64,000 nucleotides of DNA from Streptomyces sp. B21-083 (GTDB lineage Bacteria; Actinomycetota; Actinomycetes; Streptomycetales; Streptomycetaceae): assembly GCF_036898825.1 (NCBI RefSeq), contig NZ_JARUND010000001.1, positions 62,001 through 126,000 on the forward strand. The letters run 5' to 3'. Positions within the stretch are counted from its first letter, which is position 1. Every line of letters starts with the position of its first letter. Positions 14,941-38,183 of this stretch are shown in pieces. Position numbers and translations under genes: made by a program. The notes beneath the pieces were generated by a model. That model ran no database searches and was not told the DNA's origin. It worked only from the letters and a program-made list of their open reading frames with translations.

Positions 14941-15816
14941 ATGGCACGTGTGGTGGCAGTGCACGGGATCGGTCAGCAGGCACGTGGGGAGCAGTCACTG
15001 CTCCGGCTGTGGTTACCGGCCCTCAACGACGGTCTCACCCGTGCCGAGGCTCCCGGTCTCCTGCGGGAGACGGAGGTGGCGGTGGCGGTGGCGTTCTATG
15101 GTGACGTGTTCCGTCCCGAGGGGCAGTTCCTGGCCGTCGGGGATCCTCCCTACACGGCCGCGGATGTCGAAGAGGGTTTTGAGCAGGAGCTGCTGCTGGC
15201 CTGGTGGCAGGCGGCCGCCGACAGTGATCCGGCCGTGGTCCCGCCGGACGCGGACACCCTGGTGGCCACGCCGCGCTCGGTGCAGGCCGCGCTGCGGGCG
15301 CTGTCCGGCTCGCGGTTCTTCGCCGGCCTCGCGCTGCGGGCGATGGTGTCCGACCTGAAACAGGTCAGCCGCTACCTCACCGACCCCGGCCTGCGTGCCA
15401 AGGCGCTCGCCCGCGTCACTGATCAGATCGGCGAGGACACCAGGGTCGTGGTCGCTCACTCGCTGGGCTCGGTGGTGGCCTATGAGGCGCTGTGTGCGCG
15501 CCCCGGCCACCAAGTGCGGGCCCTGGTTACCATCGGGTCCCCGCTGGGGATTGCGAACTTGATCCTGCACCGTCTCCAGCCGCCACCGCTCACGCTCGGA
15601 GACCGGCCGCGCGGGGTGTGGCCGGGCGGCGAGCGGCTGGTGTGGACGAATCTGGCCGACGGCGGCGACGTGGTCGCGCTGGTGAAGGATCTGCGCCCGG
15701 TCTTTGGGGAACGGGTGCGCTGCGCGGTGGTGCACAACGGTGCGACGGCGCACGATGCGTCGGCGTATCTGACGGACCGGCTGTGTGGGCAGGCGATCAG
15801 GGACGGGCTGGCGTGA
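14941..15816 (+). CDS. Alpha/beta-hydrolase, first gene of the caspase operon
   Basis: From ATG 14941 (GGGG-rich ribosome site) the product is 291 residues. It opens with MARVVAVHGIGQQ (oxyanion loop HG) and has the nucleophile elbow VVVAHSLGSVVAYEAL with Ser in G/A-H-S-L-G. It continues with LVTIGSPLGI and a late His in CAVVHNGATAHDA, the expected order of a Ser-Asp-His esterase or lipase. No signal peptide. Its TGA overlaps the GTG of the caspase-NTPase-WD40 gene, so both are translated together. The context suggests an effector or processing partner in a conflict system rather than a metabolic lipase. Confidence 0.85.
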   Translation: MARVVAVHGIGQQARGEQSLLRLWLPALNDGLTRAEAPGLLRETEVAVAVAFYGDVFRPEGQFLAVGDPPYTAADVEEGFEQELLLAWWQAAADSDPAVVPPDADTLVATPRSVQAALRALSGSRFFAGLALRAMVSDLKQVSRYLTDPGLRAKALARVTDQIGEDTRVVVAHSLGSVVAYEALCARPGHQVRALVTIGSPLGIANLILHRLQPPPLTLGDRPRGVWPGGERLVWTNLADGGDVVALVKDLRPVFGERVRCAVVHNGATAHDASAYLTDRLCGQAIRDGLA

Positions 15817-18800
15817 GTGGCCCCAACGGTGCCCCGCGGGGCAGTGAAGGGCCGCGCCGGTATCTGATCGCGACCGCAGTCGCCCGCTATCTCAAGTGCG
15901 CTGACTGGGACCGCCCTGAACTGGTGGAGGCGCGGGAGCAGGTCATCGAGCTGTTCACGCAGCAGTTGGGCTACGACCACTACACCGCGCTCGGCCTGGA
16001 CCCGACGCGGTTGCAGCTCACCGACCAGTTGCGGGCGTTCTGTACCTCGCAGGAGCGCCGCGAGGACGACCTAGTCGTCCTCTACCTCTCCGGGCATGGC
16101 GAGGTTCTCGAGGACGGTCATGAGCATGTGCTGCTGATGGCCGACACCGACCCGTCCGACGTCTCCTACACCTCGCTGCCCACCGTGAACCTCGTACGGG
16201 CGCTGCGCGGTACCAAGGTCCGCCGGCTCCTGCTGATGCTGGATACCTGCTACTCCGGACAGGGTGGCAACGAGCTCGCGGCCGCCGCGCTGGAGCGCCT
16301 TGGCGCGCAGTGGGGGCCGGGCACCCCCAGTCCGGGGCTGGTCGTCGTGTCCTCCGCGCAGCCCCATCAGCAGGCGAAGGCGGGCTTGTTCCCGCGGTTG
16401 CTGAAGGAGGCCGTGGGCAGTCAGGCCGCCGCGGGCCATGCGCCGGTCCACCTGTCGGTATCGGCGGTGGTGCAGCAGATGAACGACCATCCCGACCGGC
16501 CCGGCTACCAGCACATCAATCTCTCCCTGCTCGGGCTGACCGGTGAGCCGCCCGACTTCCTCACCAACCCGCGGCATGACATCCGCCTCACCGATGTCGA
16601 CCTCGCCCTGCAGGATGCCGCCGAATTCGACGCTTACGCCCTGCAGCGAGAGACGGAGTTCACCACCCGCTTGCTAGTACGCGCGATGGGCTATCACGGG
16701 GATCCGGCGCTGGGCTGGTGGTTCTGCGGCCGCCACCAAGTGCTTGCGGAACTCGCCACCTGGCTCAACCAGACCGGCGACAGCGCACCGGAGGAGCCGG
16801 TGCCGCCCGATGTTCTCGCGGACGGCTGCGTGCGGGTGGTCATGGCCGGTCCGGGCTCGGGCAAGACGGCCGTGCTCGGCCTCGTCGGCGCGCTCACGAT
16901 GCCCGATCGCCGCCGCGCCGTTCCCCTCGGCTCCCTCGGTCTGGATCCGGACTGGGTTCCCGGCGAGGGCATGATCGACGTCATCATGTACGCCCAGAAC
17001 CTCACCGACAGCCAGGTCCTGGCCGGCCTCGCCGCCGCCGCCGGCTTCCGCTGCACGACCGTCGGTGAATTCCTTGAAGCCCTGGAGCACCGTAACCAGG
17101 ACCGCGGGCGGCCGTTCACGGTGCTCATCGATGCTCTGGACGAAGCAGCCACCCCCGCCACCTTGTGCTCCCAGATCGTGCGGCCGCTCATCGAGCACTC
17201 GCGCGGGCGGATCCGCCTGCTCCTGGGCACCCGCCCCCACCTGCTCGACTGTCTCGGCCTCAGCAATCGGCCGGCGCACCGAGGTGGCCCGGTGATCGAC
17301 CTCGACAGCGACCGCTACGCCGACCGTGAGGCGCTGCTGTCCTACACGATCCGCAACCTGGTCCAAAGCTGCCCCACCGCCCCCTACCGGCTAGAGGAAA
17401 ACCGCGCCCTGCTGCGGCCCGTTGCCGAAGCCGTCGCGGCCGCGGCCGGCATGTCCTTCCTCGTCGCCCGCTTCGCCGCCTACACTCTCGCCTCCGCCGA
17501 CACCGCCGTCACCGACCCGTTCGACCCACACTGGCGCGACAGCCTGCCGCGCCACGCCGGGCAGGCCATGCACGACGACCTCAACCAACGCCTCGGACCC
17601 GACGCCCAGCGCGTCACCGACCTGCTGCGCCCCCTCGCCTACGCCGAGGGCCAGGGCCTGCCCTGGGAAGACATCTGGGCGCCCCTCGCCTCCGCCGTCT
17701 CCGGCCGCCCCTACACCGACGACGACCTGCTCTGGCTGCGCCGCAACGCCGGCTCCTACGTCGTGGAGGCCACCGAGAACGGCCGCTCCGCCTACCGCCT
17801 CTACCACCAGGCCCTCACCGAACACCTCCGCGAAGACACCGACCCCACCCCCGTGCACGCCGCGTTCGTCGACACCCTCACCGACCGCGTCCCCTACCGC
17901 GGCGACGCCACCCGCGACTGGTCCCGCGCCCACCCCTACACCCTCCACCACCTCGCCACCCACACCGCCGCCTCAGGCCGCATCGACGACCTCCTCAGCA
18001 ACGCCGAGTACCTCATCCATGCGGACCCTCATAGCCTCACTCCGCACCTGCGGCGGGCATCGAGCAGGCAGGCACGCCTGACCGCAGCGGTGTACCGCAA
18101 TTCCTTCGATCTACACGCCGACGCCTCGGTGTCCATCCGCCGCAGTGTCCTTGCCCTCAACGCCGCCCGCGCCGGCGCCACCACACTGCTCGCACAGCTC
18201 AACCGCTGTGCCCACGCCACCGAGTGGATTCCGGCCTGGGCCACGGGCAATGACTTCGCTCATGCACTACGGACATCTATCACCGGACTCGACCGCGGAG
18301 TTGTAGGCATAGCGTGCAGTGTGCTTGAGGACCTTCCCGTCGGCCTCATTTCTGGACGTGACGGCGTATCCGTGTGGGATCTGTCTGCCGGGCGCCGCAT
18401 CAGCAAACCGCTCACCGACCGGATGGTGGGGTCATTGGCCTGCAGCGTTCTTGCCGATCGCCCAGTCGCTGTCATCGCCGGCGGTAACACGGTGACCGTG
18501 TCAGATCTGGCTTCTGGACGCCTGATCTGCAAACCGTTCGTCCACGGCCCGGGCCCGGTTGTTGCTATGGCGTGTACGGTCCTCAGCGGTCGGCCTGTGG
18601 CCGTCATCGGTGGTGACACGGTGACGGTGTGGGATCTGGCTTCCGGACGCCGCATCGGTGAACCGTTCACCCCAGGACGTAGCCCGGTGCGTTCCATTTC
18701 CTGCAGCCTCCTTGACGGCGGTGCGGTTGCCGTCATCAGCGGCCTCCGCTTCGACGGCGGCAGCGCTGGAACGGTGTCGGTGTGGGACCTGGCCACCGGG

Positions 18801-19767
18801 CGTCGCGTCGGTACCTCATTCGCCCCAGGCCATAGGCCGGTGGCCTCCGTTTCCTGCGCCACGCTGGACGGCCAGCCCGTCGCTGTTACCGCAGATGGCA
18901 CGGTGGAGGTCTGGGACCTGGCCACGGGACACCACCTCCGCAGATTCTTGGCCCCTTACGACGACATGGTGCGCTCCGTGGCTTGCACCGTGCTCGACGG
19001 CCGTCCCGTGGTCGTCGCCGCTGGCGCCAGGGTGGCGGTGTGGGATCTGGCCACTGGACGCCGCATCGGCAGACCTCTGATTCACCCTGGCGGCCCGGCG
19101 GACACCCTTGAGTGCACCGTCCTCGATGACCGGCCTGTCGCCGTAACGGGTAGCAGTATCGGAACCGTACGCGTCTGGGACCTGTCTGACCTTGCGTCGC
19201 CTGATGATCCGCGTGCTGTCTCAGACAACGCGTTCATGTCGTCCGTAGCTTGCACCACCCTCAACGGCCAGCTCGTTGCCGTCACCGGTGGTGAGACCGT
19301 GTCGATCTGGGACCTTGCCTCCGGACAGCGCATCAGCCAATCCCCCGCCCTAGAGGGCGACTGTGCGCGCTCGGTTTCCTGCACTGTGCTCGGCGACCGG
19401 CCCGTTGCCGTCACCGGTGGTGAGACCGTGTCGATCTGGGACCTTGCCTCCGGACAGCGCATCAGCAGCCTCTCTATCAGTCAAGACGGGCCGGTGCACT
19501 CCTTGGCGTGCAGCACCGTCGATGGCAGACCGGTTGCCGCCATCGGCGGCGATGGCACGGTGTCGATGTGGGATCTGGCCTCCGGACACCGCATCGGCAG
19601 ATCTGATACTCCTGCAGGAGGTCACTGGAGTAGCCGGGTGCACACCGTGGCGTGCACGATGCTCGACGGTCGCGCCACTGTGGTCACCGGCGGCCCCGCA
19701 CTGTCGATGTGGGACCTGACGACCGCACGCAGGATCGGCGAACCTTACGTCCAAGAGGGCCTGGGCT
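15813..19767 (+). pseudogene. Caspase - NTPase - WD40 protein, 5' part (split by IS3)
   Basis: GTG 15813 overlaps the hydrolase stop. Domains in order: a caspase (C14) domain with the dyad His95 in YLSGHGE and Cys146 in LDTCYSG; a linker; a P-loop NTPase with Walker A GPGSGKTA (346-353) and Walker B VLIDALDEA (437-445), followed by LLGTRPHLLD (sensor-like) and a helical STAND-type region; then from about residue 825, eleven WD blades. Each blade follows 'VACTVLDGRPVAVTGG' then 'VSVWDLASGRRIG', about 43 residues. The frame runs into IS3 at 19768 and ends after about 50 foreign residues. The missing three blades lie at 24896-25305. The spliced gene would encode 1453 residues and 14 blades. Such proteins are inferred anti-phage or suicide switches. 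In its present form the second propeller is truncated. Confidence 0.85.
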
Positions 19768-19824
19768 TGATCCGCTTTGACGGACATTCGAGATCAGGGG
19801 TTCTACCCCGGGAGGATGTCCATC

Positions 19825-20133
19825 ATGGAGAGCATGGGGAAGAAGAAGCCTCGCCCTCGCCGTTCGTTCACGCCGGAGTTCAAGGCCGAGATCGTCGAGC
19901 TGTGCCGACGCGGTGACCGCTCGGTCGGTCAGATCGCCAAGGACTTCGATCTGACCGAGACCGCGGTGCGGCTGTGGGTCAGCCAGGCCGAGGTCGACGC
20001 GGGCGAGCGGGACGGCCTGACCAGCGGTGAACGCGAGGAACTGGCGTCCCTGCGGCGGGAGAACCGCCGGCTGCGCGAGGACGTGGAGGTCCTCAAGCGT
20101 GCGACGGCTTTCTTCGCGAAGGAGACCCGGTGA
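19825..20133 (+). CDS. IS3-family transposase OrfA
   Basis: From ATG 19825 (GGGAGG nine bases upstream) the product is about 102 residues. It begins MESMGKKKPRPRRSFTPEFK and continues AEIVELCRRGDRSVGQIAKD, a HTH_Tnp_1 domain. A leucine-zipper-like coiled coil follows (LASLRRENRRLREDVEVLKR). It ends in FFAKETR. OrfA binds the IS ends; the stop overlaps the orfB start, where IS3 elements normally make an OrfAB fusion by frameshifting. Confidence 0.9.
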   Translation: MESMGKKKPRPRRSFTPEFKAEIVELCRRGDRSVGQIAKDFDLTETAVRLWVSQAEVDAGERDGLTSGEREELASLRRENRRLREDVEVLKRATAFFAKETR

Positions 20134-20309
20134 CGGTCCACCCGTTCATCGAGGCGGAGAAGCGTGCAGGTCACAGCGTCAAACGGGCGTGTGAACTGCT
20201 GAAGGTCTCCCGGACCGCCTTCTATGCCCGCCGCACCGGCACGCCCGGTCCACGCGCGGCCCGTGACGCCGGAGCAATTGTCAAATCCTGTGGATCACCG
20301 CGAAGAGCC

Positions 20310-20807
20310 TCAATCCAGCCGTAGCCATTGACCAAGGACTGCGAAGTCCTGGTCGGTGAGGCCGCGGGACGACGCAATGCGATGGAGGAGGGCTGGTGCC
20401 GGGTGGCGGGTGGACACCCAGTCCCGATCGGCGTCGGTGATCTCGTCGTCGACCCAGGCGAACGGGCGTCCGTCCGCCCATGCCACGAGGGTTCGGGTCT
20501 TCCAGTGGAGCCCGAACCACTGGTCTTCTCGTTCGTGGGCGGCGGAGGGCTCCGGCCAGTTCACGACCGGCAGTTGGGGCAGGCCGAGCCGCGGTGCCAG
20601 CTCGATATTCGCCTCCTCTTCCCAGGTCGTGGCCCAGACCAGGTCGCACGGCAGCGCCGCGAGCCGCGGCCCGGCCTGTGGGACGAGCCGCGCCAGGTGC
20701 GTGTCCGATGCGGTGCCCGCCGGCTCGCGCTGCGGGCCATCGCCGAACGGCAGGAGCGGCCCGTCGACGTCCAAGAAGAGCAGTGGACGGTTCCCGTGCG
20801 CGGTCAT
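20310..20807 (-). CDS. HAD-like protein, passenger in the IS256-type element
   Basis: This 165-residue protein begins with the HAD motif I (PLLFLDVDGPLLPFG, Asp-x-Asp) and continues LPCDLVWATTWEEEANIELA (motif II Thr), KTRTLVAWADGRPFAWVDDE (conserved Lys, then the DD of motif IV). It resembles the short HAD proteins of actinobacteria that some databases link to RNA repair. Its ATG overlaps the transposase TGA (ATGA), so it is translated with the transposase. All core HAD acids are visible, so it should be an active phosphatase or similar. Its role for the element is unknown. Confidence 0.85.
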   Translation of the reverse strand: MTAHGNRPLLFLDVDGPLLPFGDGPQREPAGTASDTHLARLVPQAGPRLAALPCDLVWATTWEEEANIELAPRLGLPQLPVVNWPEPSAAHEREDQWFGLHWKTRTLVAWADGRPFAWVDDEITDADRDWVSTRHPAPALLHRIASSRGLTDQDFAVLGQWLRLD

Positions 20808-22057
20808 GCTGCGCTCACCTCGGGGCGCTCGACGAGGTAGCCGTTCTGGAACGTGGCGCCGTTGCGGACGAGGGCGACGAGGTGGGGTGCGGTGATCGCG
20901 CGCCAGCGTGCCTGGGCGGACTCGGCGAGCTTGAACACCATGGCCAGGGCGGCAGCGGGGCTGCCGGCGCCGCGGGTGACCCGGGTCCTCAACTTGACGG
21001 TGCTGAAGGTGGATTCGATCGGGTTCGTCGTCCTGAGGTGCACCCAGTGTTCGGCGGGGAAGTCGTAGAACGCCAGGAGTTCATCGGTCTCGTCGCTGAC
21101 CTTCTTCACCGCTTTCGGCCACTTCGCGCCGTAGGTGCGCTCGAACTCCTTGACGGCCTTCTGGGCGTGGTCGCGGTCTTCGGCGTTGTAGATCTCCTGC
21201 AGTGCCTTCTTAGCGCCGGGCTGGGCCGACTTCGGCAGGGCGTTGACCACGTTGCGGGTTTTGTGAACCCAGCACCTTTGGTGCCTGGCCTGCGGAAACA
21301 CCTCCGCCAGAGCCCGCCACAGGCCCATCGCGCCGTCACCGACCACGAGCTCGGGATCCCGCATGCCGCGCCGTCGGCAATCACGCAGCAGGTCGGCCCA
21401 GGACTCGGTGGACTCGCGCAATCCTTCAGCGAGCGCGATGAGTTCCTTGCGGCCGTCGGTGCGCACGCCCATGAGGACCAGGACGCAGGAGCGGGCCTGG
21501 CCGAGGCGGACCTTGGGGTGGACGCCGTCGGCCCACACGTACACGTAGTCGGATTCCGACAGGTCCCGGTCCTGGAAGGCAGCATGGTCGTCGCTCCACT
21601 GCTTGGTCAGACGGGTCACGGTGGCCGGCGAGAGCCCGGCCGAGCTGCCGAGGAACTGCTCGAGTGCGGGAACGAAGTCGCCGGAGGACAGTCCGTGCAG
21701 GTAGAGCAGGGGAAGGACCTCGCTGATCTTCGGGGACTTGCGGCACCAGGGGGCCAGGATCTGCGACGAGAACCGCTTGCGTTCGCCCGTCTCGGCATCG
21801 ACGCGCTTGTCGTTCACGCGCGGTGCCTTGACCGGGATCGGCCCGGCGGCCGTGGTCACGGTGCGCTCGGCGTGGTGGCCGTTGCGGACCACCAGACGTC
21901 GGCCGGTCTCGTCGCGCTGGTCAGCCAACTCGGCTATGTACTGGTTGACTTCGGCCTCCAGGGCCGCGGCGAGCATCCGCCGGGCGCCCTCGCGGACTAT
22001 GTTGTCCATCAGGGAGCCGGTCTCGGTGGTTCCGTCGTTGTTGACTACGCTGAGCAC
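20804..22057 (-). CDS. IS256-family (Mutator) transposase
   Basis: 417 residues, full length. N-terminal: MDNIVREGARRMLAAALEAE and VNQYI, typical of IS256. DDE core: the first Asp in YVYVWADGVHPKVR, the second in LVVGDGAMGLWRA followed by the family motif FPQARHQRCWVHKTRNV, and Glu in TTNPIESTFSTVKLRTR. It shares only family-level similarity with the 431-residue IS256 transposases at 44-50 kb. The start at 22057 (GTG) is 134 bp from the element end. Confidence 0.95.
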   Translation of the reverse strand: MLSVVNNDGTTETGSLMDNIVREGARRMLAAALEAEVNQYIAELADQRDETGRRLVVRNGHHAERTVTTAAGPIPVKAPRVNDKRVDAETGERKRFSSQILAPWCRKSPKISEVLPLLYLHGLSSGDFVPALEQFLGSSAGLSPATVTRLTKQWSDDHAAFQDRDLSESDYVYVWADGVHPKVRLGQARSCVLVLMGVRTDGRKELIALAEGLRESTESWADLLRDCRRRGMRDPELVVGDGAMGLWRALAEVFPQARHQRCWVHKTRNVVNALPKSAQPGAKKALQEIYNAEDRDHAQKAVKEFERTYGAKWPKAVKKVSDETDELLAFYDFPAEHWVHLRTTNPIESTFSTVKLRTRVTRGAGSPAAALAMVFKLAESAQARWRAITAPHLVALVRNGATFQNGYLVERPEVSAA

Positions 22058-22465
22058 GGGCGTGCCTTCCCGACCCGCGCGCCAACGCGGGCCTACTCGA
22101 TGACCAGAAGTCGATCACTCGGGAAGGTACGCCCTCCGCGTTGTGCGAGGCATCCCTCCCGAGGTCGATCCACAGGTCTTGAGCATTGCTCGTGACGCCG
22201 AACTGGCGGCACAGATCACCGATGTCCACACGCGATCGCGGGGAACCTACGGTGCCCCGCGCGTGCACGCCGTGCTCAAGCGGGCGGGTGCCGGGTGCGG
22301 GCGGCGCCGCGTCGCCCGGCTGATGCGGGCAGCCGGCCTGCAGGGCAGGCATCGCAGACGGCGGCACCTGACGACGGTCCCCGATCCGCGGGCTGTTCTG
22401 CGGCCCGATCTCATCGTCCGCGACTTCCAGCCCGACCCCGACGGGCTGAATACCCGCTGGTGCGG

Positions 22466-22539
22466 GTCGGGTAGCCGGAGGGAATCTCACCCTCCGGCTC
22501 CCACAGAACCGTGCGTAACAGTCTCCCGTTACACGGCTC
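22466..22539 (-). ncRNA. Group II intron domains V and VI
   Basis: Domain V is the 34-nt hairpin at 22506-22539, beginning GAGCCGTGTAACGGGAGA and closing ACGCACGGTTC; it holds the catalytic AGC-type base. Domain VI follows at 22466-22503 as a GGGAGCCGGAGGG hairpin that would carry the branch-point A. Confidence 0.85.
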
Positions 22540-22551
22540 TTGTCACCCTGA

Positions 22552-23883
22552 TCACCAGAAATTACGGCACAGGCGCCAATGCGCGAACATTCCCGGGTAT
22601 CGCCGTGTGATCCCCTGGAAACAATCCTTGGCTTTCTTGAACCCGGCCAGCCGTTTGTACTTTCTGCGGATCCAGCGCACCAGGTAGGCATTGATGCGCC
22701 GCAGGAGGGGTTTCAGCGCGGAGTGATAGAACGCTCCGTAGTACTGCATCCACCCTCGCACGATCGGGTTGATGATGCGTGCGAGTTGAGCGAAGGTGTG
22801 ACCCGTGCGCCGGTGGATCCGCCACCCGCGCAATTCAGAACTGAGCCTCTTCAGGGCGTCCTTGCTGATCGCAGGCAGAAAGCACGGAAATGTCACCCCA
22901 TGCTTGCTGCGCGCCGCGCGAGCGCGGAACGTGAACCCCAGGAACGTGAACGCCGTGTGCTCATACGAGCCCCGCCGGTTCGCGTCCTTGCAGTAGACAA
23001 TCCGGGTCTTGTCGGGATGCAGACACAACCCGACCTCTTCCATCCGGTTCCCGATCGCCTCCACCAGTCTTCTGGCCTGGCGCTCGCTGACGCAGTGCAC
23101 GACCGCGTCATCCACGTAGCGTTCGAAGGGGACGTTCGGGAACTCCCGAGCCAGCCACATGTCGAACGCGTAGTGCAGAAACAGATTCGCCAACACGGGC
23201 GAAACCGATGACCCTTGCGGGGTCCCCCGGTCTCGCATCTGCAAGGTGCCATCGGGTAGTTGAAGCGGTGCCTCCAGCCATCGCCGGACGTACAACTTCA
23301 CCCAAACGGCGTCGGTGTGCGCTTCCACAGCCTTGACGATGAGGTCCCAGCGGACGCTGTCGAAGAACTTCCGGATGTCGAGGTCGACGACCCAGTCCTT
23401 CTTCCAGCAGCGTTCTCGGCACTTTTCCACCGCGTCCAGTGCCGACCGCCCTGGCCGATACCCATAGGAGTCCGGATGGAACTTCGGTTCCACCTCGCGC
23501 TCCAAGCGGGCGGCCACTACGGTCTGTGCAATTCTGTCCGCGACCGTGGGAACGCCGAGAATTCTGGTACCACCGCCATGCGACTTCGGAATCTCCACCG
23601 CTCGCACCGGGGGCGGAAAGTAGCTGCCCGAGGACATTCGGTTCCAGATCTTGAAGAGATTGCCCTTCAGATCCTTCTCGAAGTCCTCGATCGAGCAGCC
23701 ATCTACACCCGGCGCCCCCTTATTTGCCCTGACCTTCTCCCATGCCTCCCAAACTTCCCACTTCGAGATCTCAAACGACTTCCCTGGCGACTTCAGCTCG
23801 CCCACCCGACTCCTCCCAGGACACACCCGGTTGATCGAACGAACACAGCCACGGATGACCCGGCCCCTTCGCTCCATCTCCAT
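22552..23883 (-). CDS. ltrA: Group II intron reverse transcriptase/maturase
   Basis: From the Met at 23883 the product is about 443 residues. Reverse transcriptase blocks in order: KVRANKGAPGVDG, GTRILGVPTVADRIAQ, SYGYRPGRSALDAV, VVDLDIRKFFDSV, GTPQGSSVSPVLANLF, and the active site FERYVDDAVVHC (YVDD). The maturase X domain follows (NPIVRGWMQYYGAFYHSALK, YLVRWIRRKYKRL). No HNH endonuclease domain follows, so mobility would rely on nicked or single-strand targets. The frame is open well upstream of this Met; the exact start is uncertain. Confidence 0.95.
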   Translation of the reverse strand: MEMERRGRVIRGCVRSINRVCPGRSRVGELKSPGKSFEISKWEVWEAWEKVRANKGAPGVDGCSIEDFEKDLKGNLFKIWNRMSSGSYFPPPVRAVEIPKSHGGGTRILGVPTVADRIAQTVVAARLEREVEPKFHPDSYGYRPGRSALDAVEKCRERCWKKDWVVDLDIRKFFDSVRWDLIVKAVEAHTDAVWVKLYVRRWLEAPLQLPDGTLQMRDRGTPQGSSVSPVLANLFLHYAFDMWLAREFPNVPFERYVDDAVVHCVSERQARRLVEAIGNRMEEVGLCLHPDKTRIVYCKDANRRGSYEHTAFTFLGFTFRARAARSKHGVTFPCFLPAISKDALKRLSSELRGWRIHRRTGHTFAQLARIINPIVRGWMQYYGAFYHSALKPLLRRINAYLVRWIRRKYKRLAGFKKAKDCFQGITRRYPGMFAHWRLCRNFW

Positions 23884-24895
23884 TACAGAGACTTCATCAC
23901 TACTACGAGCCGGTCCGCCGGCGAGTCCCGCACCGGTACTCGATCCCTCGCGGTTTCCGCCGCTTCGGGACACTCCCTCTCCCTGCCCATGAGGCAGGAC
24001 TATCGGGACTCGCCTTCCCACGTTCCACGTGAAAGCAGCAGACCAGGCTCGCGTCGCCTCCATGCCGGGCACCGTCTGGCCAGTAGACGGGTGTCCGCCA
24101 GACTTGTCCTGGAGCCATATCTACACCCCCAGTTTCGATGCCATCTAAATAGGTTTTCGACACGTCATCAGCGATTCGCTTGCGCTCGCCTTCCTGGTCC
24201 CCACCTGACGCCTCTTGGGCGCCTTTTCCACATCGCTCACCACGACGGCCTTCAGCCAACGCAGCATGTGGCGGTTTGAAGCCTCCCCCCGCAGGGCGGC
24301 TCCGAAGGGCCTACCTTCATCTTTCACGCAGCACCGCATTCAAAGAGGTGCCGACCTACATTCCTGAACCTCTCTTCCTGCGTTCGTGGCACACCGACAT
24401 CACCTATATCGCCACACAGGAGGGCTGGCTCTACCTGGCCACCGTCATCGACATCGCTTCCCGCCGCGTGGTCGGCTGGGCAACGGCTGATCACCTGCGG
24501 ACCGATCTCGTCGCCGACGCCCTGACGAACGCCTGCCGGCAACGTCGCCCCACCGCTCCGGTGATCTTCCACTCGGATCGCGGCTGTCAATACACCAGTC
24601 AGCAACTTGCCGCGCTGGCAGACCAGTTGGGGGTGCGTCTGTCGGTCGGCCGCACCGGGCAGTGCTGGGACAACGCACTCGCCGAGTCGTTCTTCGCCAC
24701 CATCAAACGCGAGTTGCTCGACACCACCGCCTGGCCCAGCCGGGCCTCCGCCCACACCGCGATCTTCGATTTCATCGAGGGCTGGTACAACTTGCACCGT
24801 CTGCACAGCAGCCTCGGCTACCGCAGTCCCGCCGAATACGAGACCGCATCCGCAGCCTGACCACCACACCAATGGTGTCCGTCAAAGCGGAACAA

Positions 24896-25305
24896 GCTCA
24901 GGCCACCGGGTACACGCCGTGGCATGCACCTACCTCGATGGTCGCGCCATCGCCGTCGTCGGCGCCCGCGAATTCTTCAGCGGCACTGTGTCGGTGTGGG
25001 ACCTGGCTTCCAGACGCCGCATCTGCCAACTCGAGGAATTTGACGGCCGGGTGGGCTCCGTGGCGTGCACTGTCCTCGGCGGTCGGCCCATCGCCGTTAC
25101 CGGCACCACATCAGAAAGTGGTCCGGGTCATATTCGTGTATGGGACCTCAGGACACGGAAGCTCGTGCAGCACTTCGTACTGCCAGATCTGCAACGAGTT
25201 GAGGTGGCTCCCGATGGCAGCCTCGTCGTCCTGTTGGGACGCGATATCGCCGTCTTGCAACCGCAATCGGACTGGTCCTCTGGGAGACCGTTTCGCGGAG
25301 CCTGA
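24896..25305 (+). pseudogene. Caspase - NTPase - WD40 protein, 3' part (last three blades)
   Basis: In the frame restored by removing IS3, this reads GHRVHAVACTYLDGRAIAVV, GTVSVWDLASRRRICQLEEF, a second blade with VRVWDLRTRKLVQHF-like spacing (HIRVWDLRTRKLVQHF), and a last degenerate blade with RVEVAPDGSLVVLLGRD. It has no start codon or ribosome site of its own. The stop is at 25303. Confidence 0.85.
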
Positions 25306-25538: not shown

Positions 25539-26537
25539 ATGAAGATATGGGCCATGGACCCCGAGGATTCAGAACAGCTCCAGGAACTGGTCACCCGCTT
25601 GGCGGCCGACGCCATACGTCGCGCCCCGAGAACGCTCGGCCGCATCAGCCGTCGGCGGCACGGGTTCCAGAGCCGCCTTCGCCGACACTGGGGCCGCAGT
25701 CTGGACCTCTACGAACTGACTCTCCACCGAGCCCGCGAGCTCGGCGCCGAACTCAGCCGGACCGCCGACCCGGCGGAGTGCGACGCCCTGACCTATGTGT
25801 TGACCAGCATCCACGCCAGGGCGTGCCGGGTGGCTGACGAGGTGCACTGCTTGCTGACCGTCGGGCACGGCCAAGGTGCGCTGAAGTCAGCGCGTGTGCT
25901 CTACGAGCTCGCCGTCGTGTCGATGGCACTCAGCGAGTACGGCCGCCAGCCTGGGCACGAGGACCTGGTCGACCGGTACCTCGCGCACGCGGACGTCATC
26001 CAGTTCAAGGCGATGAAGGTCTATCAGGAGCATGCCCCAGACCTGGGCCAGGAGCCGTTCTCGCCGGAGGAGGTTGAGGCGGCGGAGCATGCCTCCGAAA
26101 CTGCCAAGGCCCAGTACGGGAAGGTCATCGGGCAGCAGTTCGGATGGGCGGCCAACCTGCCGGGCGCCCCAGGAAAGACCACCGAGGGTCTGGCCGCCGT
26201 GGTTGGCATCGCCCATCTCCATCCGTACTTCGACTGGGCCTCAGCGGAGAGCCACGGCGGTGCACACGGCGTGTCCCTGAACACGGTGGACACCCGACGA
26301 GGCGCCATGCTGATGGCCGGCCCCAGCGTGGACGGACTGGTCACGCCCGCCAGCCTCAGCCTCATCTGCCTCCACCACTGCACCCTCAGCCTCGTTGTCC
26401 ATGGACAGGCCGAACCGGATCTGGCGGCCCTGGTAATGCTCCAGGTAGTCGACAAGCTACGAGCCCGAACCGACGCCGCCCTTAAAGCCGCACACGAGAA
26501 GGGGCCACAACTACCGCTCGTGGGCAGCAGGGTGTGA
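25539..26537 (+). CDS. DUF5677-like protein
   Basis: About 332 residues, predicted largely helical. The core HGQGALKSARVLYELAVVSM, followed by DRYLAHADVIQ, resembles DUF5677, whose members have the pattern of repeated helices with A-x-x-L-x-R-x-x-x-E. The middle has HPYFDWASAESHGGAHGVSL with two His and Asp that could bind metal. Function is unknown. It begins 234 bp after the caspase-WD40 gene end and may once have been in the same transcription unit. The start could be Met 25539 or Met 25554; neither has a strong ribosome site. Confidence 0.75.
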   Translation: MKIWAMDPEDSEQLQELVTRLAADAIRRAPRTLGRISRRRHGFQSRLRRHWGRSLDLYELTLHRARELGAELSRTADPAECDALTYVLTSIHARACRVADEVHCLLTVGHGQGALKSARVLYELAVVSMALSEYGRQPGHEDLVDRYLAHADVIQFKAMKVYQEHAPDLGQEPFSPEEVEAAEHASETAKAQYGKVIGQQFGWAANLPGAPGKTTEGLAAVVGIAHLHPYFDWASAESHGGAHGVSLNTVDTRRGAMLMAGPSVDGLVTPASLSLICLHHCTLSLVVHGQAEPDLAALVMLQVVDKLRARTDAALKAAHEKGPQLPLVGSRV

Positions 26538-27941: not shown

Positions 27942-28445
27942 TCAGGCGCGGCGGCGGGCGTCGCCCCGGTGGTCGCGGTCGTGGTCGCGGCCCCAGGACT
28001 CGTCGTCGATGAAGCGGCCGTGGTCGTTGCGCAGGGTGGCCGTGTCCCGGTCGTTGTTCCACACGTAGTTGCGGCGGTCCTGGTAGAGGTCGGTGCGGGT
28101 GTCGCGGCCCTCACCGGTGTGGATACGGACCGTGGCACGGCCGGCCAGGCGGTAGTCGTCGAAGGTGTAGGTGTGCCCCGACTCGTCCTCCAGCGTCCAG
28201 CCGTCGAGGTCCACGCCGTTGCGGGTGGTGTTGGTGAGTTCCACCCACTCCTTGTTCAGTGAGCGGTTGGAGCGGTCGTCGCGTCCCGGGGAGTCGTACT
28301 GGACAGCGGAGATCTCCACCTTCGGGTGCTGCGGACGCGCGTGGCCGGCAGCGGATGCCGGCAGCGCCGCCACCGAGACCAGAGCACCGGCCGCGAGCGC
28401 TCCGGCGGCCAGACGACGGGCGGTGACAGAAGCAGAAGCGGACAA
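27942..28445 (-). CDS. Secreted lamin-tail domain (LTD) protein
   Basis: The TTG at 28445 follows AGGGGGA by five bases, giving 167 residues. A signal peptide is clear: basic TARR, hydrophobic LAAGALAAGALVSVAALPA, cleavage after SAAG. The mature part has VEISAVQYDSPG, EWVELTNTTRNGVDLDGWTL and YTFDDYRLAGRATVRIHTG, YVWNNDRDTATLRND, the core strands of the lamin-tail fold found in many secreted bacterial proteins. The C-terminus is Asp/Arg-rich. Probably an exported nucleic-acid or envelope-binding module, usually fused to nucleases elsewhere; here it stands alone. Confidence 0.85.
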   Translation of the reverse strand: MSASASVTARRLAAGALAAGALVSVAALPASAAGHARPQHPKVEISAVQYDSPGRDDRSNRSLNKEWVELTNTTRNGVDLDGWTLEDESGHTYTFDDYRLAGRATVRIHTGEGRDTRTDLYQDRRNYVWNNDRDTATLRNDHGRFIDDESWGRDHDRDHRGDARRRA

Positions 28446-28880
28446 GAAGTCCCCCTGAAGGTGCGGGCGCCACTCCCCCGTAAACGGCCTTCCGGTCGCT
28501 GTGGGAGTCGGTGCGGTGTGCGGGTGGCGGCCGGACTGGCCGCACACCCACACTCTGTCCACCCCGTGCAGGAGTTGGGTAGAAAACATGGACTGTGTTA
28601 CTGGTTACCCATATTCCTGTGACTCTCGACTGCCTCATCCATGTATGCCGCTGATGCCCGAGGTTGACGACCCGACACGATCCCACCCCCGTGCAGGAGT
28701 TGGTTCAGTGCCCGCAGCCGTCACACCACGCCACCCCGGCACCGCGGGGGCCGTCACCCGAAAGTGAGTAACAGCCCTGGTGCAGTGTCAAGGAGGTGGG
28801 GCGCGGCCAGTCCTGGTGGGCACGTCGGCGCACCGTCTCGTCGGGATGATGGCCGCCCGCAGTGCGGGCCCGCGGTCCAG
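28446..28880. other. Gene-free region upstream of the LTD gene
   Basis: About 430 bp. It must hold the LTD promoter near 28480-28620; an AT-richer patch (GTAGAAAACATGG, GGTTACCCATATTCC) is at 28580-28620. No other feature recognised. Confidence 0.4.
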
Positions 28881-36902: not shown

Positions 36903-38183
36903 TCAGTTGGTCACGACAATGTCGAACTTCTCAGTGTCCAGAACGCGCTGGTTCTTGACCATGGAGCCGTAGACGCCGCCAGCAGAGGAGTTGGCCGTGG
37001 ACGACACATGTGCACGAATGCACGGCTCGGTGCCCTTGACGGGCTTGTCGGTGCGCGCTGCGTAGAACTTCCACTGTCCGCCCTCGAGCTTCGGCACGAT
37101 GTCTGCGCACAGTGCACCATCCGTGCCGCCCTCGTAGGTGCCGGCGAATGGGAACTCGTCACACGAATCGTCAGGAACCTGGTTGGGCATCGCGACGAAC
37201 GGGTCACTGCTCTTGGCGCCACAGGTCCGCTCCCGGTTGGCAACTGCGACCGTCTCACTGGCAACCCGGCGCAGGGGCGCACCTCCCCGCAGGTTGTTCT
37301 GCGCCCACGCGTATGCGGCTGCTGCGGAAGCGTGCTTGGGGTCGGACAGGGAGAACGAGGAGTAGGCGCGGCGCTCCGGGATGACGCAACCGGAGGTGGT
37401 GAACTCCGCGTCGCAGCGGATCTTGGCCTCGGGCGGGCTGCCCCAGTTCAGATTGGGCTGGATGGGGACCGCGCCGCTGCTCACGACGTAGATGTGGTAC
37501 TGGGTGTCGAAGCTGTCGTGTGTGCCCGAGGGGACGCTGCTCTTGTACGTGACAGAGCCGGTCGCACTCTGGCCGGCCGCGAGTGTCTTGATGCCCGTCC
37601 ACGGCTTGTTCGACGGCGCCGAGCAGCTGGAGGTGCAACCGACGTCGAATGCCACGTTCAGCGACTTGACCTGGCCGGTTGTCTGCGTCACCGTCAGCGT
37701 GATGGATTCACTCCAGGTCAGGCTGCTGGCACTGAACTGGTTACTGCTGTTGACGCTCATCGTGCCGGTGCCGATGGGCTTGCTCTTGTCATCGATCAGC
37801 GTGTAGGTCGCAATGGTGTCGGCCTGGCAGATCGGGCCTGTACGGGTCCAGGTGAACAGCCCGGGCCGAAGCTGGCAGGAGTCTGCCAGCGGGGACACAG
37901 CGGCTGCCGACCTGGCCGCCTCGGCCGCCGGCTTGACCTCAACACAGGATTTTATGGCTCCGCCCAGTGCTTCCTGATTTGCAGCAGGGATGGAATCGCA
38001 CGACGCTTCGGGCTCGACGGCCGAGCTACCCACCTCCGGCACGTGCGCCGAAGCAGAAGCGCTCACAACCCCCAAAGGCTGAGCAGTGTCCGGCGCGCCA
38101 GCGGCGCTGGCGGCCGGCGCCGTGAACCCTGCCACTGCAAGCGCAGCGGCTACGGCGATGGCTCTTCGTAATGCTGTGGGCAC
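36903..38183 (-). CDS. Secreted NucA/NucB-type deoxyribonuclease
   Basis: 426 residues. Signal peptide MPTALRRAIAVAAALAVAGF, then TAPAASAAG cleavage region. The middle is beta-rich with paired Cys (VGCTSSCSAPSN). The C-terminal 120 residues hold the NucA/NucB domain: RTCGAKSSDPF, PDDSCDEFPFAGTYEGG with the D-E-F/Y-P-F-A catalytic motif, and a terminal strand. NucB of Bacillus is a metal-dependent DNase that degrades extracellular DNA. This long form is typical of actinobacteria. Role: nutrient release, competition or biofilm turnover. Confidence 0.88.
   Translation of the reverse strand: MPTALRRAIAVAAALAVAGFTAPAASAAGAPDTAQPLGVVSASASAHVPEVGSSAVEPEASCDSIPAANQEALGGAIKSCVEVKPAAEAARSAAAVSPLADSCQLRPGLFTWTRTGPICQADTIATYTLIDDKSKPIGTGTMSVNSSNQFSASSLTWSESITLTVTQTTGQVKSLNVAFDVGCTSSCSAPSNKPWTGIKTLAAGQSATGSVTYKSSVPSGTHDSFDTQYHIYVVSSGAVPIQPNLNWGSPPEAKIRCDAEFTTSGCVIPERRAYSSFSLSDPKHASAAAAYAWAQNNLRGGAPLRRVASETVAVANRERTCGAKSSDPFVAMPNQVPDDSCDEFPFAGTYEGGTDGALCADIVPKLEGGQWKFYAARTDKPVKGTEPCIRAHVSSTANSSAGGVYGSMVKNQRVLDTEKFDIVVTN

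What the first reader, a model, noticed from the sequence alone, without database searches (positions are those of the whole stretch)
14941..25305. Hydrolase plus caspase-NTPase-WD40 operon: a candidate conflict system, now split by IS3
Seen: GTGA overlap between an alpha/beta hydrolase with a Ser elbow (AHSLGS) and a protein with a caspase dyad (His95, Cys146), Walker A/B and WD blades. Removing the IS3 at its GCT duplication joins 11 and 3 blades, exactly 14, as for two seven-bladed propellers. Known: caspase and STAND-NTPase-WD40 combinations are thought to act in bacterial suicide or anti-phage defence. Inference: the pair is a two-gene switch with two effectors; the hydrolase pairing is the unusual part.
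Basis: partly seen in the sequence, partly recalled or inferred. Interest (0 to 1): 0.85.

Follow-up and report, generated by a model that had tools for sequence, protein, structure and literature searches.

The report
Caspase–lipase immune switch, broken here
A bacterial gene pair couples an immune-receptor-like protein carrying a caspase to a lipase-like enzyme; the pairing recurs in several bacterial phyla and looks like a cell-suicide switch, although both copies in this strain are broken.

Summary
A lipase-like alpha/beta hydrolase overlaps (GTGA) a caspase–STAND NTPase–WD40 gene that is split by an insertion with a GCT duplication. The insert is a nest: an IS3-type element holding an IS256-family element and a group II intron. 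The two pieces give 13 profile-detected blades (11+2), the commonest count among relatives.

The pairing is real. In sampled genomes of the genus, 42 of 44 hydrolase loci hold a caspase. Of 64 loci matching the large protein, 44 of 51 with a caspase domain have an alpha/beta hydrolase nearby, against 1 of 13 without: the hydrolase follows the caspase, not the NTPase. In five loci an LCAT-family protein takes its place. Both active sites are invariant in all members aligned. Pairs also occur in Pseudomonadota, Bacteroidota and Cyanobacteriota, some without NTPase or WD40.

Best reading (mechanism inferred): an NLR-like receptor with a diversifying WD40 sensor activates its caspase, which unleashes a membrane lipase. 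Kaur et al. 2020 already reported caspase–hydrolase pairing in MoxR-vWA ternary systems; I add the STAND-WD40 two-gene form and the lipase swap. This genome's second copy is also broken. Literature search was down.

The parts
14941..15816 (+). alpha/beta hydrolase (lipase-like), 291 aa; presumed triad Ser174-Asp243-His271, HG at 8-9
   Evidence: AlphaFold model pLDDT 91.8; nearest folds are lipases/esterases
15813..19767 (+). caspase-STAND NTPase-WD40 gene, upstream part: caspase, NTPase and blades 1-11 (the open frame runs on to 19916 inside the insert)
15849..16559 (+). caspase domain (approximate ends); His95 codon 16095-16097, Cys146 codon 16248-16250, Asp144 two residues before the Cys
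   Evidence: Peptidase_C14; 60 of 60 aligned keep the dyad; structural match to caspases, MALT1 and metacaspase
16563..18212 (+). STAND-type NTPase region (approximate ends); Walker A codons 16848-16868, Walker B 17124-17147
   Evidence: Foldseek matches to MalT, NRC resistosomes, Dark/Dronc
18297..19767 (+). WD40 blades 1-11
19765..19767 (.). GCT target-site duplication, left copy
19768..24895 (+). IS3-type insertion sequence (itself interrupted) that splits the WD40 gene
   Evidence: inverted repeats and GCT duplication; the IS3 name rests on layout, recalled; no family scan was run on its ORFs
20272..22191 (-). IS256-family element nested in the IS3-type element; transposase 20804-22057
   Evidence: 9-bp duplication GTGACGCCG; identical 1920-bp copy in the paralogous gene; Transposase_mut
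22466..24394 (-). group II intron nested in the IS3-type element; RT/maturase 22552-24072; intron ends inferred by eye
   Evidence: Rfam RF01999 and RF00029; RVT_1 and GIIM
24896..24898 (.). GCT target-site duplication, right copy
24899..25305 (+). caspase-STAND-WD40 gene, downstream part: blades 12-14 and stop

Best explanation
This is a two-gene, NLR-like conflict (immune/suicide) module. The large protein is a receptor: WD40 propellers sense a ligand, the STAND NTPase switches to an oligomer on NTP binding, and the N-terminal caspase becomes active by proximity. The active caspase, probably cutting after Arg/Lys, acts on or with the co-encoded hydrolase, a lipase-like enzyme that attacks membrane lipids and stops or kills the infected cell. 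Shown by computation: gene pairing, conserved active sites, fold classes, dependence of the hydrolase on the caspase domain, LCAT-family neighbours in its place, hypervariable blade positions. Inferred: lipid substrate, activation by cleavage, phage as trigger, cell death as outcome. In this genome both copies are broken, so the module probably does not work here.
Against: No experiment shows defence, death, lipid hydrolysis or cleavage. Seven caspase-positive loci have no hydrolase found; three are truncated, fragmentary or near a contig end, but L116, L117, L120 and L121 have no such excuse, and plasmid locus L224 has a caspase without hydrolase. Only 21 of 42 loci share the same nearest neighbour for hydrolase and caspase (27 of 42 for hydrolase and NTPase), so the co-divergence is loose. 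No hydrolase-caspase fusion was found. Foldseek gave the hydrolase no match at E<=0.001, and its nearest folds also include thioesterases and cutinases. pN/pS at the variable blade sites is 0.78-1.47, about 1, and the sites were chosen from some of the same proteins. None of 50,697 phage records encodes the hydrolase at E<=1e-5.
Confidence: 0.5

Rival explanations
1. The hydrolase is not the killer but a regulator or maturation enzyme, for example a deacylase/thioesterase that keeps the caspase receptor off or releases it from the membrane; the caspase itself kills by proteolysis.
For: Nearest folds include acyl-protein thioesterase-like enzymes APT1 and SOBER1. Gene order varies: 36 hydrolase-first, 4 caspase-first, 1 divergent, 1 rearranged, of 42. 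The caspase active site is intact in 60 of 60.
Against: An LCAT-family protein in the same seat is easier to explain if lipid hydrolysis is the shared job.
Confidence: 0.2
2. The module serves self-recognition or developmental cell death in multicellular bacteria, as fungal NWD/HET proteins do, rather than phage defence.
For: Diversifying WD40 arrays. Present in 40 of 246 genomes of the genus but 12 of 396 of a phylum-wide sample, six of those 12 in the genus itself (different query and threshold). Fungal parallel recalled.
Against: Patchy presence, plasmid copies and two CRISPR neighbourhoods fit defence better.
Confidence: 0.2
3. In this genome the locus is decaying DNA in an insertion-bearing region near a contig end, with no remaining function (compatible with the best explanation, which concerns intact relatives).
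For: The gene is split by three nested elements; the second copy carries the same IS256 and an apparent frameshift, which could also be a sequencing error; the closest named relative, S. phaeochromogenes L063, has an IS256-like element where the caspase gene should start.
Against: Concerns only this genome; many relatives have uninterrupted frames.
Confidence: 0.75
4. The hydrolase and caspase are merely co-transferred neighbours with no joint function.
For: Four unexplained caspase loci without hydrolase; loose nearest-neighbour agreement.
Against: Pairing across four phyla, order reversal, replacement lipase.
Confidence: 0.03

Closest known systems
VMAP (MoxR-vWA) ternary conflict systems with caspase plus alpha/beta-hydrolase (Kaur et al. 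2020, PMC7159879)
   Same: A caspase domain on a large protein with a neighbouring alpha/beta-hydrolase gene; the authors suggest the two operate together (passages).
   Different: No VMAP-C match in this genome; STAND-WD40 instead. In 2 of 20 VMAP stretches opened a hydrolase matched our profile, only distantly (E about 1e-12 and 2e-6).
EACC1-caspase two-gene system (Kaur et al. 2020, System 4)
   Same: Two genes, caspase at the N-terminus of the 3' protein, variable C-terminal domains that can include STAND NTPases (section read). NCBIfam's EACC1-type caspase model is the nearest curated caspase family: 49 of 50 members match at 1e-3.
   Different: The window caspase scores 62.8 bits, under the cut-off of 140. 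EACC1 was found in 18 of 30 carrier genomes searched (30 chosen from 40 carriers), in no case at the pair loci. The partner here is a hydrolase.
PADLOC 'caspase' (PDLC02987)
   Same: 20 of 50 aligned caspase-NTPase proteins match at E<=1e-3, best 5.4e-16; window 4e-4.
   Different: The hydrolase has no PADLOC match in 49 members.
APAF-1/Dark apoptosome and plant NLR resistosomes
   Same: STAND NTPase with a repeat sensor coupled to a death effector; Foldseek lists Dark/Dronc and NRC3/NRC4.
   Different: The caspase is fused to the receptor, not recruited; the partner is a lipase-like enzyme.
Fungal NWD/HET STAND receptors with hypervariable WD40 (recalled)
   Same: Near-identical blades with variation at a few positions; PF23586 NWD2_C is the one propeller model above cut-off in the window.
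   Different: Caspase domain and separate hydrolase gene; bacterial.
Bacterial gasdermin-protease systems (recalled, not read)
   Same: A protease releases a membrane-attacking partner encoded next door, as proposed here.
   Different: The partner is an enzyme of the lipase fold with an intact triad, not a pore-former.

Membership tests
Caspase superfamily (Peptidase_C14) | caspase fold with His-Cys dyad | tested here: met
STAND NTPase | Walker A and B in a STAND-like architecture | tested here: met
   Walker A GK and Walker B Asp 59 of 59 each; Foldseek matches to MalT, NRC3/4, Dark. STAND clade not resolved; Pfam scores weak
Two seven-bladed WD40 propellers | 14 blades in the two pieces together | tested here: met
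   11 + 2 by profile and one degenerate blade by eye; 19 of 33 relatives with 8 or more detected blades also give 13; the propellers were not modelled
Alpha/beta hydrolase superfamily, lipase-like | fold plus Ser-Asp-His triad | tested here: met
Alpha/beta hydrolase superfamily, lipase-like | activity on lipids | not testable with these tools
   needs enzymology
A named curated hydrolase family | window copy above a curated cut-off | tested here: not met
   under every Pfam cut-off; 0 of 49 members match NCBIfam at 1e-3 or PADLOC at 0.01. 26 of 49 members match PF07819 PGAP1 at E<=0.01, best 3.2e-6, so some members may pass that cut-off
VMAP ternary system | VMAP protein (VMAP-C domain) | tested here: not met
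   no PF20028 match in G000
VMAP ternary system | MoxR and vWA genes | not tested
   none among the 10 window ORFs scanned, but no search was made for them
EACC1-caspase system | EACC1 gene 5' of the caspase | tested here: not met
   no EACC1 in G000; none at the pair loci of the 30 carrier genomes searched
EACC1-caspase system | EACC1-type caspase model above cut-off | tested here: not met
   62.8 bits against 140 for the window copy
Anti-phage defence system | protection against phage | not testable with these tools
   only indirect genomic evidence

The most novel reading that the evidence does not exclude
A class of bacterial NLRs in which a diversifying, self-homogenising WD40 receptor drives a built-in caspase whose dedicated job is to unleash a neighbouring lipase. 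The caspase-lipase pair is the portable core: it is plugged into STAND-WD40, STAND-TPR, PIN-TPR-GreAB/C-like and ternary sensors, and the lipase can be swapped for an LCAT-type enzyme. Proteolysis-triggered membrane lipolysis would then be a death mechanism parallel to caspase-gasdermin pyroptosis.
Probability: 0.4. Interest if true: 0.8.

Novelty: new variant of a known kind. Interest (0 to 1): 0.62.

Why it matters
If the mechanism holds, bacteria use caspases to switch on lipases, an immune cell-death route parallel to caspase-gasdermin pyroptosis, with a receptor that evolves like fungal and animal WD40 immune sensors. The hydrolase is poorly covered by curated libraries (no NCBIfam or PADLOC match in 49 members, weak Pfam matches), yet it marks caspase loci in four phyla, so it can be used to find more such systems. 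The LCAT-family replacement makes the lipase hypothesis directly testable.

Tried and rejected
Hydrolase-caspase fusions: apparent ones from long open frames disappeared when frames were compared (0 in the 71 loci). EACC1 as a hidden third gene: not at the loci. A common third gene by neighbour clustering: none; the largest cluster, an ABC-transporter-like protein in 6 loci, lay 1.0-5.4 kb away; the informative ones were the LCAT gene (5 loci) and a large unnamed protein beside the divergent pairs L109-L113. VMAP hydrolases as the same family: only distant. Positive selection on blades: suggestive at best. Preference of insertions for the large gene: three cases, gene length alone could explain it. 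A fold that did not appear in the structure lists is not thereby excluded.

Literature: all ten full-text searches that ran failed, as did six look-ups, so I cannot claim that this module is absent from print. Two PMC numbers recalled wrongly gave unrelated papers. The large protein database was switched off, so that homologue query could not be made. Genome searches score only a limited number of candidates per genome, so carrier counts are lower bounds.
Full report
What is there. The window lies at 62-126 kb of a 5.4-Mb contig in a 10.5-Mb genome. At 14941-15816 a 291-residue alpha/beta hydrolase is encoded, and a GTG start at 15813 overlaps its stop codon. The second gene encodes a caspase domain, a STAND-type NTPase and WD40 blades. 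It is cut between blades 11 and 12 by an IS3-type element flanked by GCT. That element holds an IS256-family element with a 9-bp duplication and a minus-strand group II intron. The nesting implies that the IS3-type element came first.

A second copy, also broken. The same genome has a paralogous pair about 106 kb away (hydrolase 79%, caspase-NTPase 77% identical). It too is interrupted in the WD40 region, by an IS256 copy identical over 1920 bases but with a different 9-bp duplication, and it has an apparent frameshift upstream, which could be a sequencing error. Three full identical copies of that IS256 were found in the genome, two of them at these two genes. The closest named relative, S. 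phaeochromogenes L063 (hydrolase 88%), has an IS256-like element where the caspase gene should begin. I draw no selection argument from three cases. The plain consequence is that this strain probably has no working copy.

Is the pairing real? In 246 genomes of the genus, 40 have the hydrolase at E<=1e-30 (45 rows, 44 loci) and 49 have the caspase-NTPase. With profiles built from fetched loci, 42 of the 44 hydrolase loci contain a caspase (window itself). The two exceptions are L114, with a truncated hydrolase, and L091, whose genome carries a caspase-NTPase without hydrolase elsewhere (L116). Order is hydrolase-first in 36, caspase-first in 4 (L087-L090), divergent in 1 (L100) and rearranged in 1 (L101).

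Which part does the hydrolase follow? I examined all 64 loci behind the 66 match rows (three rows are one locus). Of 51 with a caspase domain, 39 have this hydrolase and 5 more an LCAT-family protein in the stretch; 7 have neither. Of the 7, L128 is truncated, L202 is a fragment and L209 lies near a contig end, leaving L116, L117, L120 and L121 unexplained. Of 13 without a caspase domain, none has this hydrolase and one has an LCAT gene 5.9 kb off. So the hydrolase goes with the caspase. The loci are related by descent, so the Fisher value (1.7e-7) is a guide only.

Replacement lipase. The five LCAT proteins (L115, L119, L126, L127, L130) score above Pfam's cut-off for PF02450 and lie beside caspase-NTPase genes that lack the usual hydrolase. 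In L127 the LCAT gene directly precedes the caspase gene on the same strand; in L115, L119 and L130 it is divergent, in L126 downstream. LCAT enzymes act on phospholipid acyl chains (recalled). Another lipase family in the same seat is my main reason to call the usual hydrolase a lipase.

Other phyla and other sensors. Ten loci came from named genomes; 8 have a caspase, L063 has the IS256-like element instead, and L068 ends soon after the hydrolase. They include Bradyrhizobium (L070, caspase and NTPase in two adjacent frames, perhaps one frameshifted gene), Chitinophaga (L071) and two Nocardia (L067, L072). Of 38 plasmid records with a hydrolase match I opened 8, two of them because a caspase was annotated; all 8 have a caspase match beside the hydrolase (weakest L200 at 2.7e-4, annotated as caspase but without a Pfam match). 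Rhizobium, Sinorhizobium and Hymenobacter carry a caspase protein of 593-655 residues plus the hydrolase, with no NTPase or WD40 match. In the cyanobacterium Leptolyngbya the caspase is fused to an HTH_upst_double_PIN domain above cut-off and a PIN-TPR-GreABC match just under it (27.2 of 27.8 bits). L127 has TPR instead of WD40, and L079 has caspase and AAA but no WD40 match. A caspase search of plasmids gave 10 records; I opened two more: L223 has the hydrolase, L224 does not. No phage record matched. A phylum-wide sample gave 12 of 396 genomes, six of them in the genus.

Co-divergence. Distances of hydrolase and caspase correlate at r=0.78, hydrolase and NTPase at 0.83, with permutation maxima 0.39 and 0.42 over 42 loci having all three; within the genus (38 loci) 0.80. 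But nearest neighbours agree in only 21 and 27 of 42, so exchange between lineages is not excluded.

The sensor. Blade counts by one profile: window 11 + 2. Of 55 other rows, 33 have at least 8 detected blades; 19 of these give 13, six give 18-20 and eight give 8-12 (some of the 33 lack a caspase, and L065 and L076 are the same protein). The 22 rows below 8 include truncated and divergent proteins. With a weak last blade this fits two, or in some three, seven-bladed propellers; I did not model them. Blade identity within a protein ranges from 0.28 to 0.83, window 0.53, against a between-protein mean of 0.39. In four arrays inspected the changes pile up at positions such as 2, 3, 5 and 23; in 12 proteins that I chose, position 3 is among the six most variable in 11, position 5 in 10, position 23 in 9. 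pN/pS at these sites exceeds the rest in 12 of 12 but is about 1, and the sites were picked from some of the same proteins. This looks like a homogenising, surface-diversifying receptor as known from fungal WD40 receptors (recalled).

Comparison with what is known. Kaur et al. 2020 (PMC7159879: outline, passages and section 33) describe caspase plus alpha/beta-hydrolase pairing in VMAP ternary systems and an EACC1-caspase two-gene system. Kaur et al. 2021 (PMC8195603: outline and passages) treat alpha/beta-hydrolases as membrane-lipid effectors and describe a TPR-GreA/B-C-PIN system; the passages I saw do not mention a neighbouring hydrolase there. The present module fails the tests made for VMAP and EACC1, but on paper it works like them. 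PADLOC's generic caspase model matches 20 of 50 members; four members weakly match NCBIfam's antiphage EruA (best 1.2e-4). Paper searches failed throughout, so later descriptions may exist.

Verdict. A real, widespread and probably immune caspase-lipase module, a new variant of a known kind, seen here in a broken state.

Noticed in passing
window 20272-22191 and L003:11496-13415: The same 1920-bp IS256-family element, 100% identical, sits at both copies of the system; three full identical copies were found in the 10.5-Mb genome.
   Followed up: partly
L063:1106-1733: An IS256-like element (83% identical DNA) lies at the caspase start next to an intact hydrolase in S. phaeochromogenes, the closest named relative found.
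   Followed up: partly
window 22466-24394: Group II intron on the minus strand nested in the IS3-type element; the RF00029 match ends at the junction that I inferred by eye.
   Followed up: partly
L109-L113: More divergent pairs share a third gene of about 1400-1800 residues (some cut by the stretch end); the L110 copy matched no Pfam family at 1e-3.
   Followed up: no
L198:1417-2013: In a Hymenobacter plasmid, a gene annotated as DEAD/DEAH helicase carries a caspase-profile match (E 9e-20) close to the caspase-hydrolase pair.
   Followed up: no
L201 and L223: On two Streptomyces plasmids the pair is followed by an HD-domain gene and type I-E CRISPR Cse1.
   Followed up: no
L091 and L116 (genome G197): Hydrolase without caspase and caspase-NTPase without hydrolase occur in the same genome at unlinked places; possibly a split pair.
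   Followed up: no
L172:1-3279: Another caspase-NTPase protein at the edge of a stretch fetched for a VMAP gene; its neighbours were not seen.
   Followed up: no
L224:5592-7398: A plasmid caspase protein preceded by a 137-residue gene and no hydrolase; whether the small gene is EACC1 was not tested.
   Followed up: no
window 36906-38183 and 27945-28589: A NucA/NucB-type DNase protein and a lamin-tail-domain protein are encoded nearby.
   Followed up: no
window 25539-26537: A DUF5677 protein follows the broken gene; whether relatives have it was not tested.
   Followed up: no
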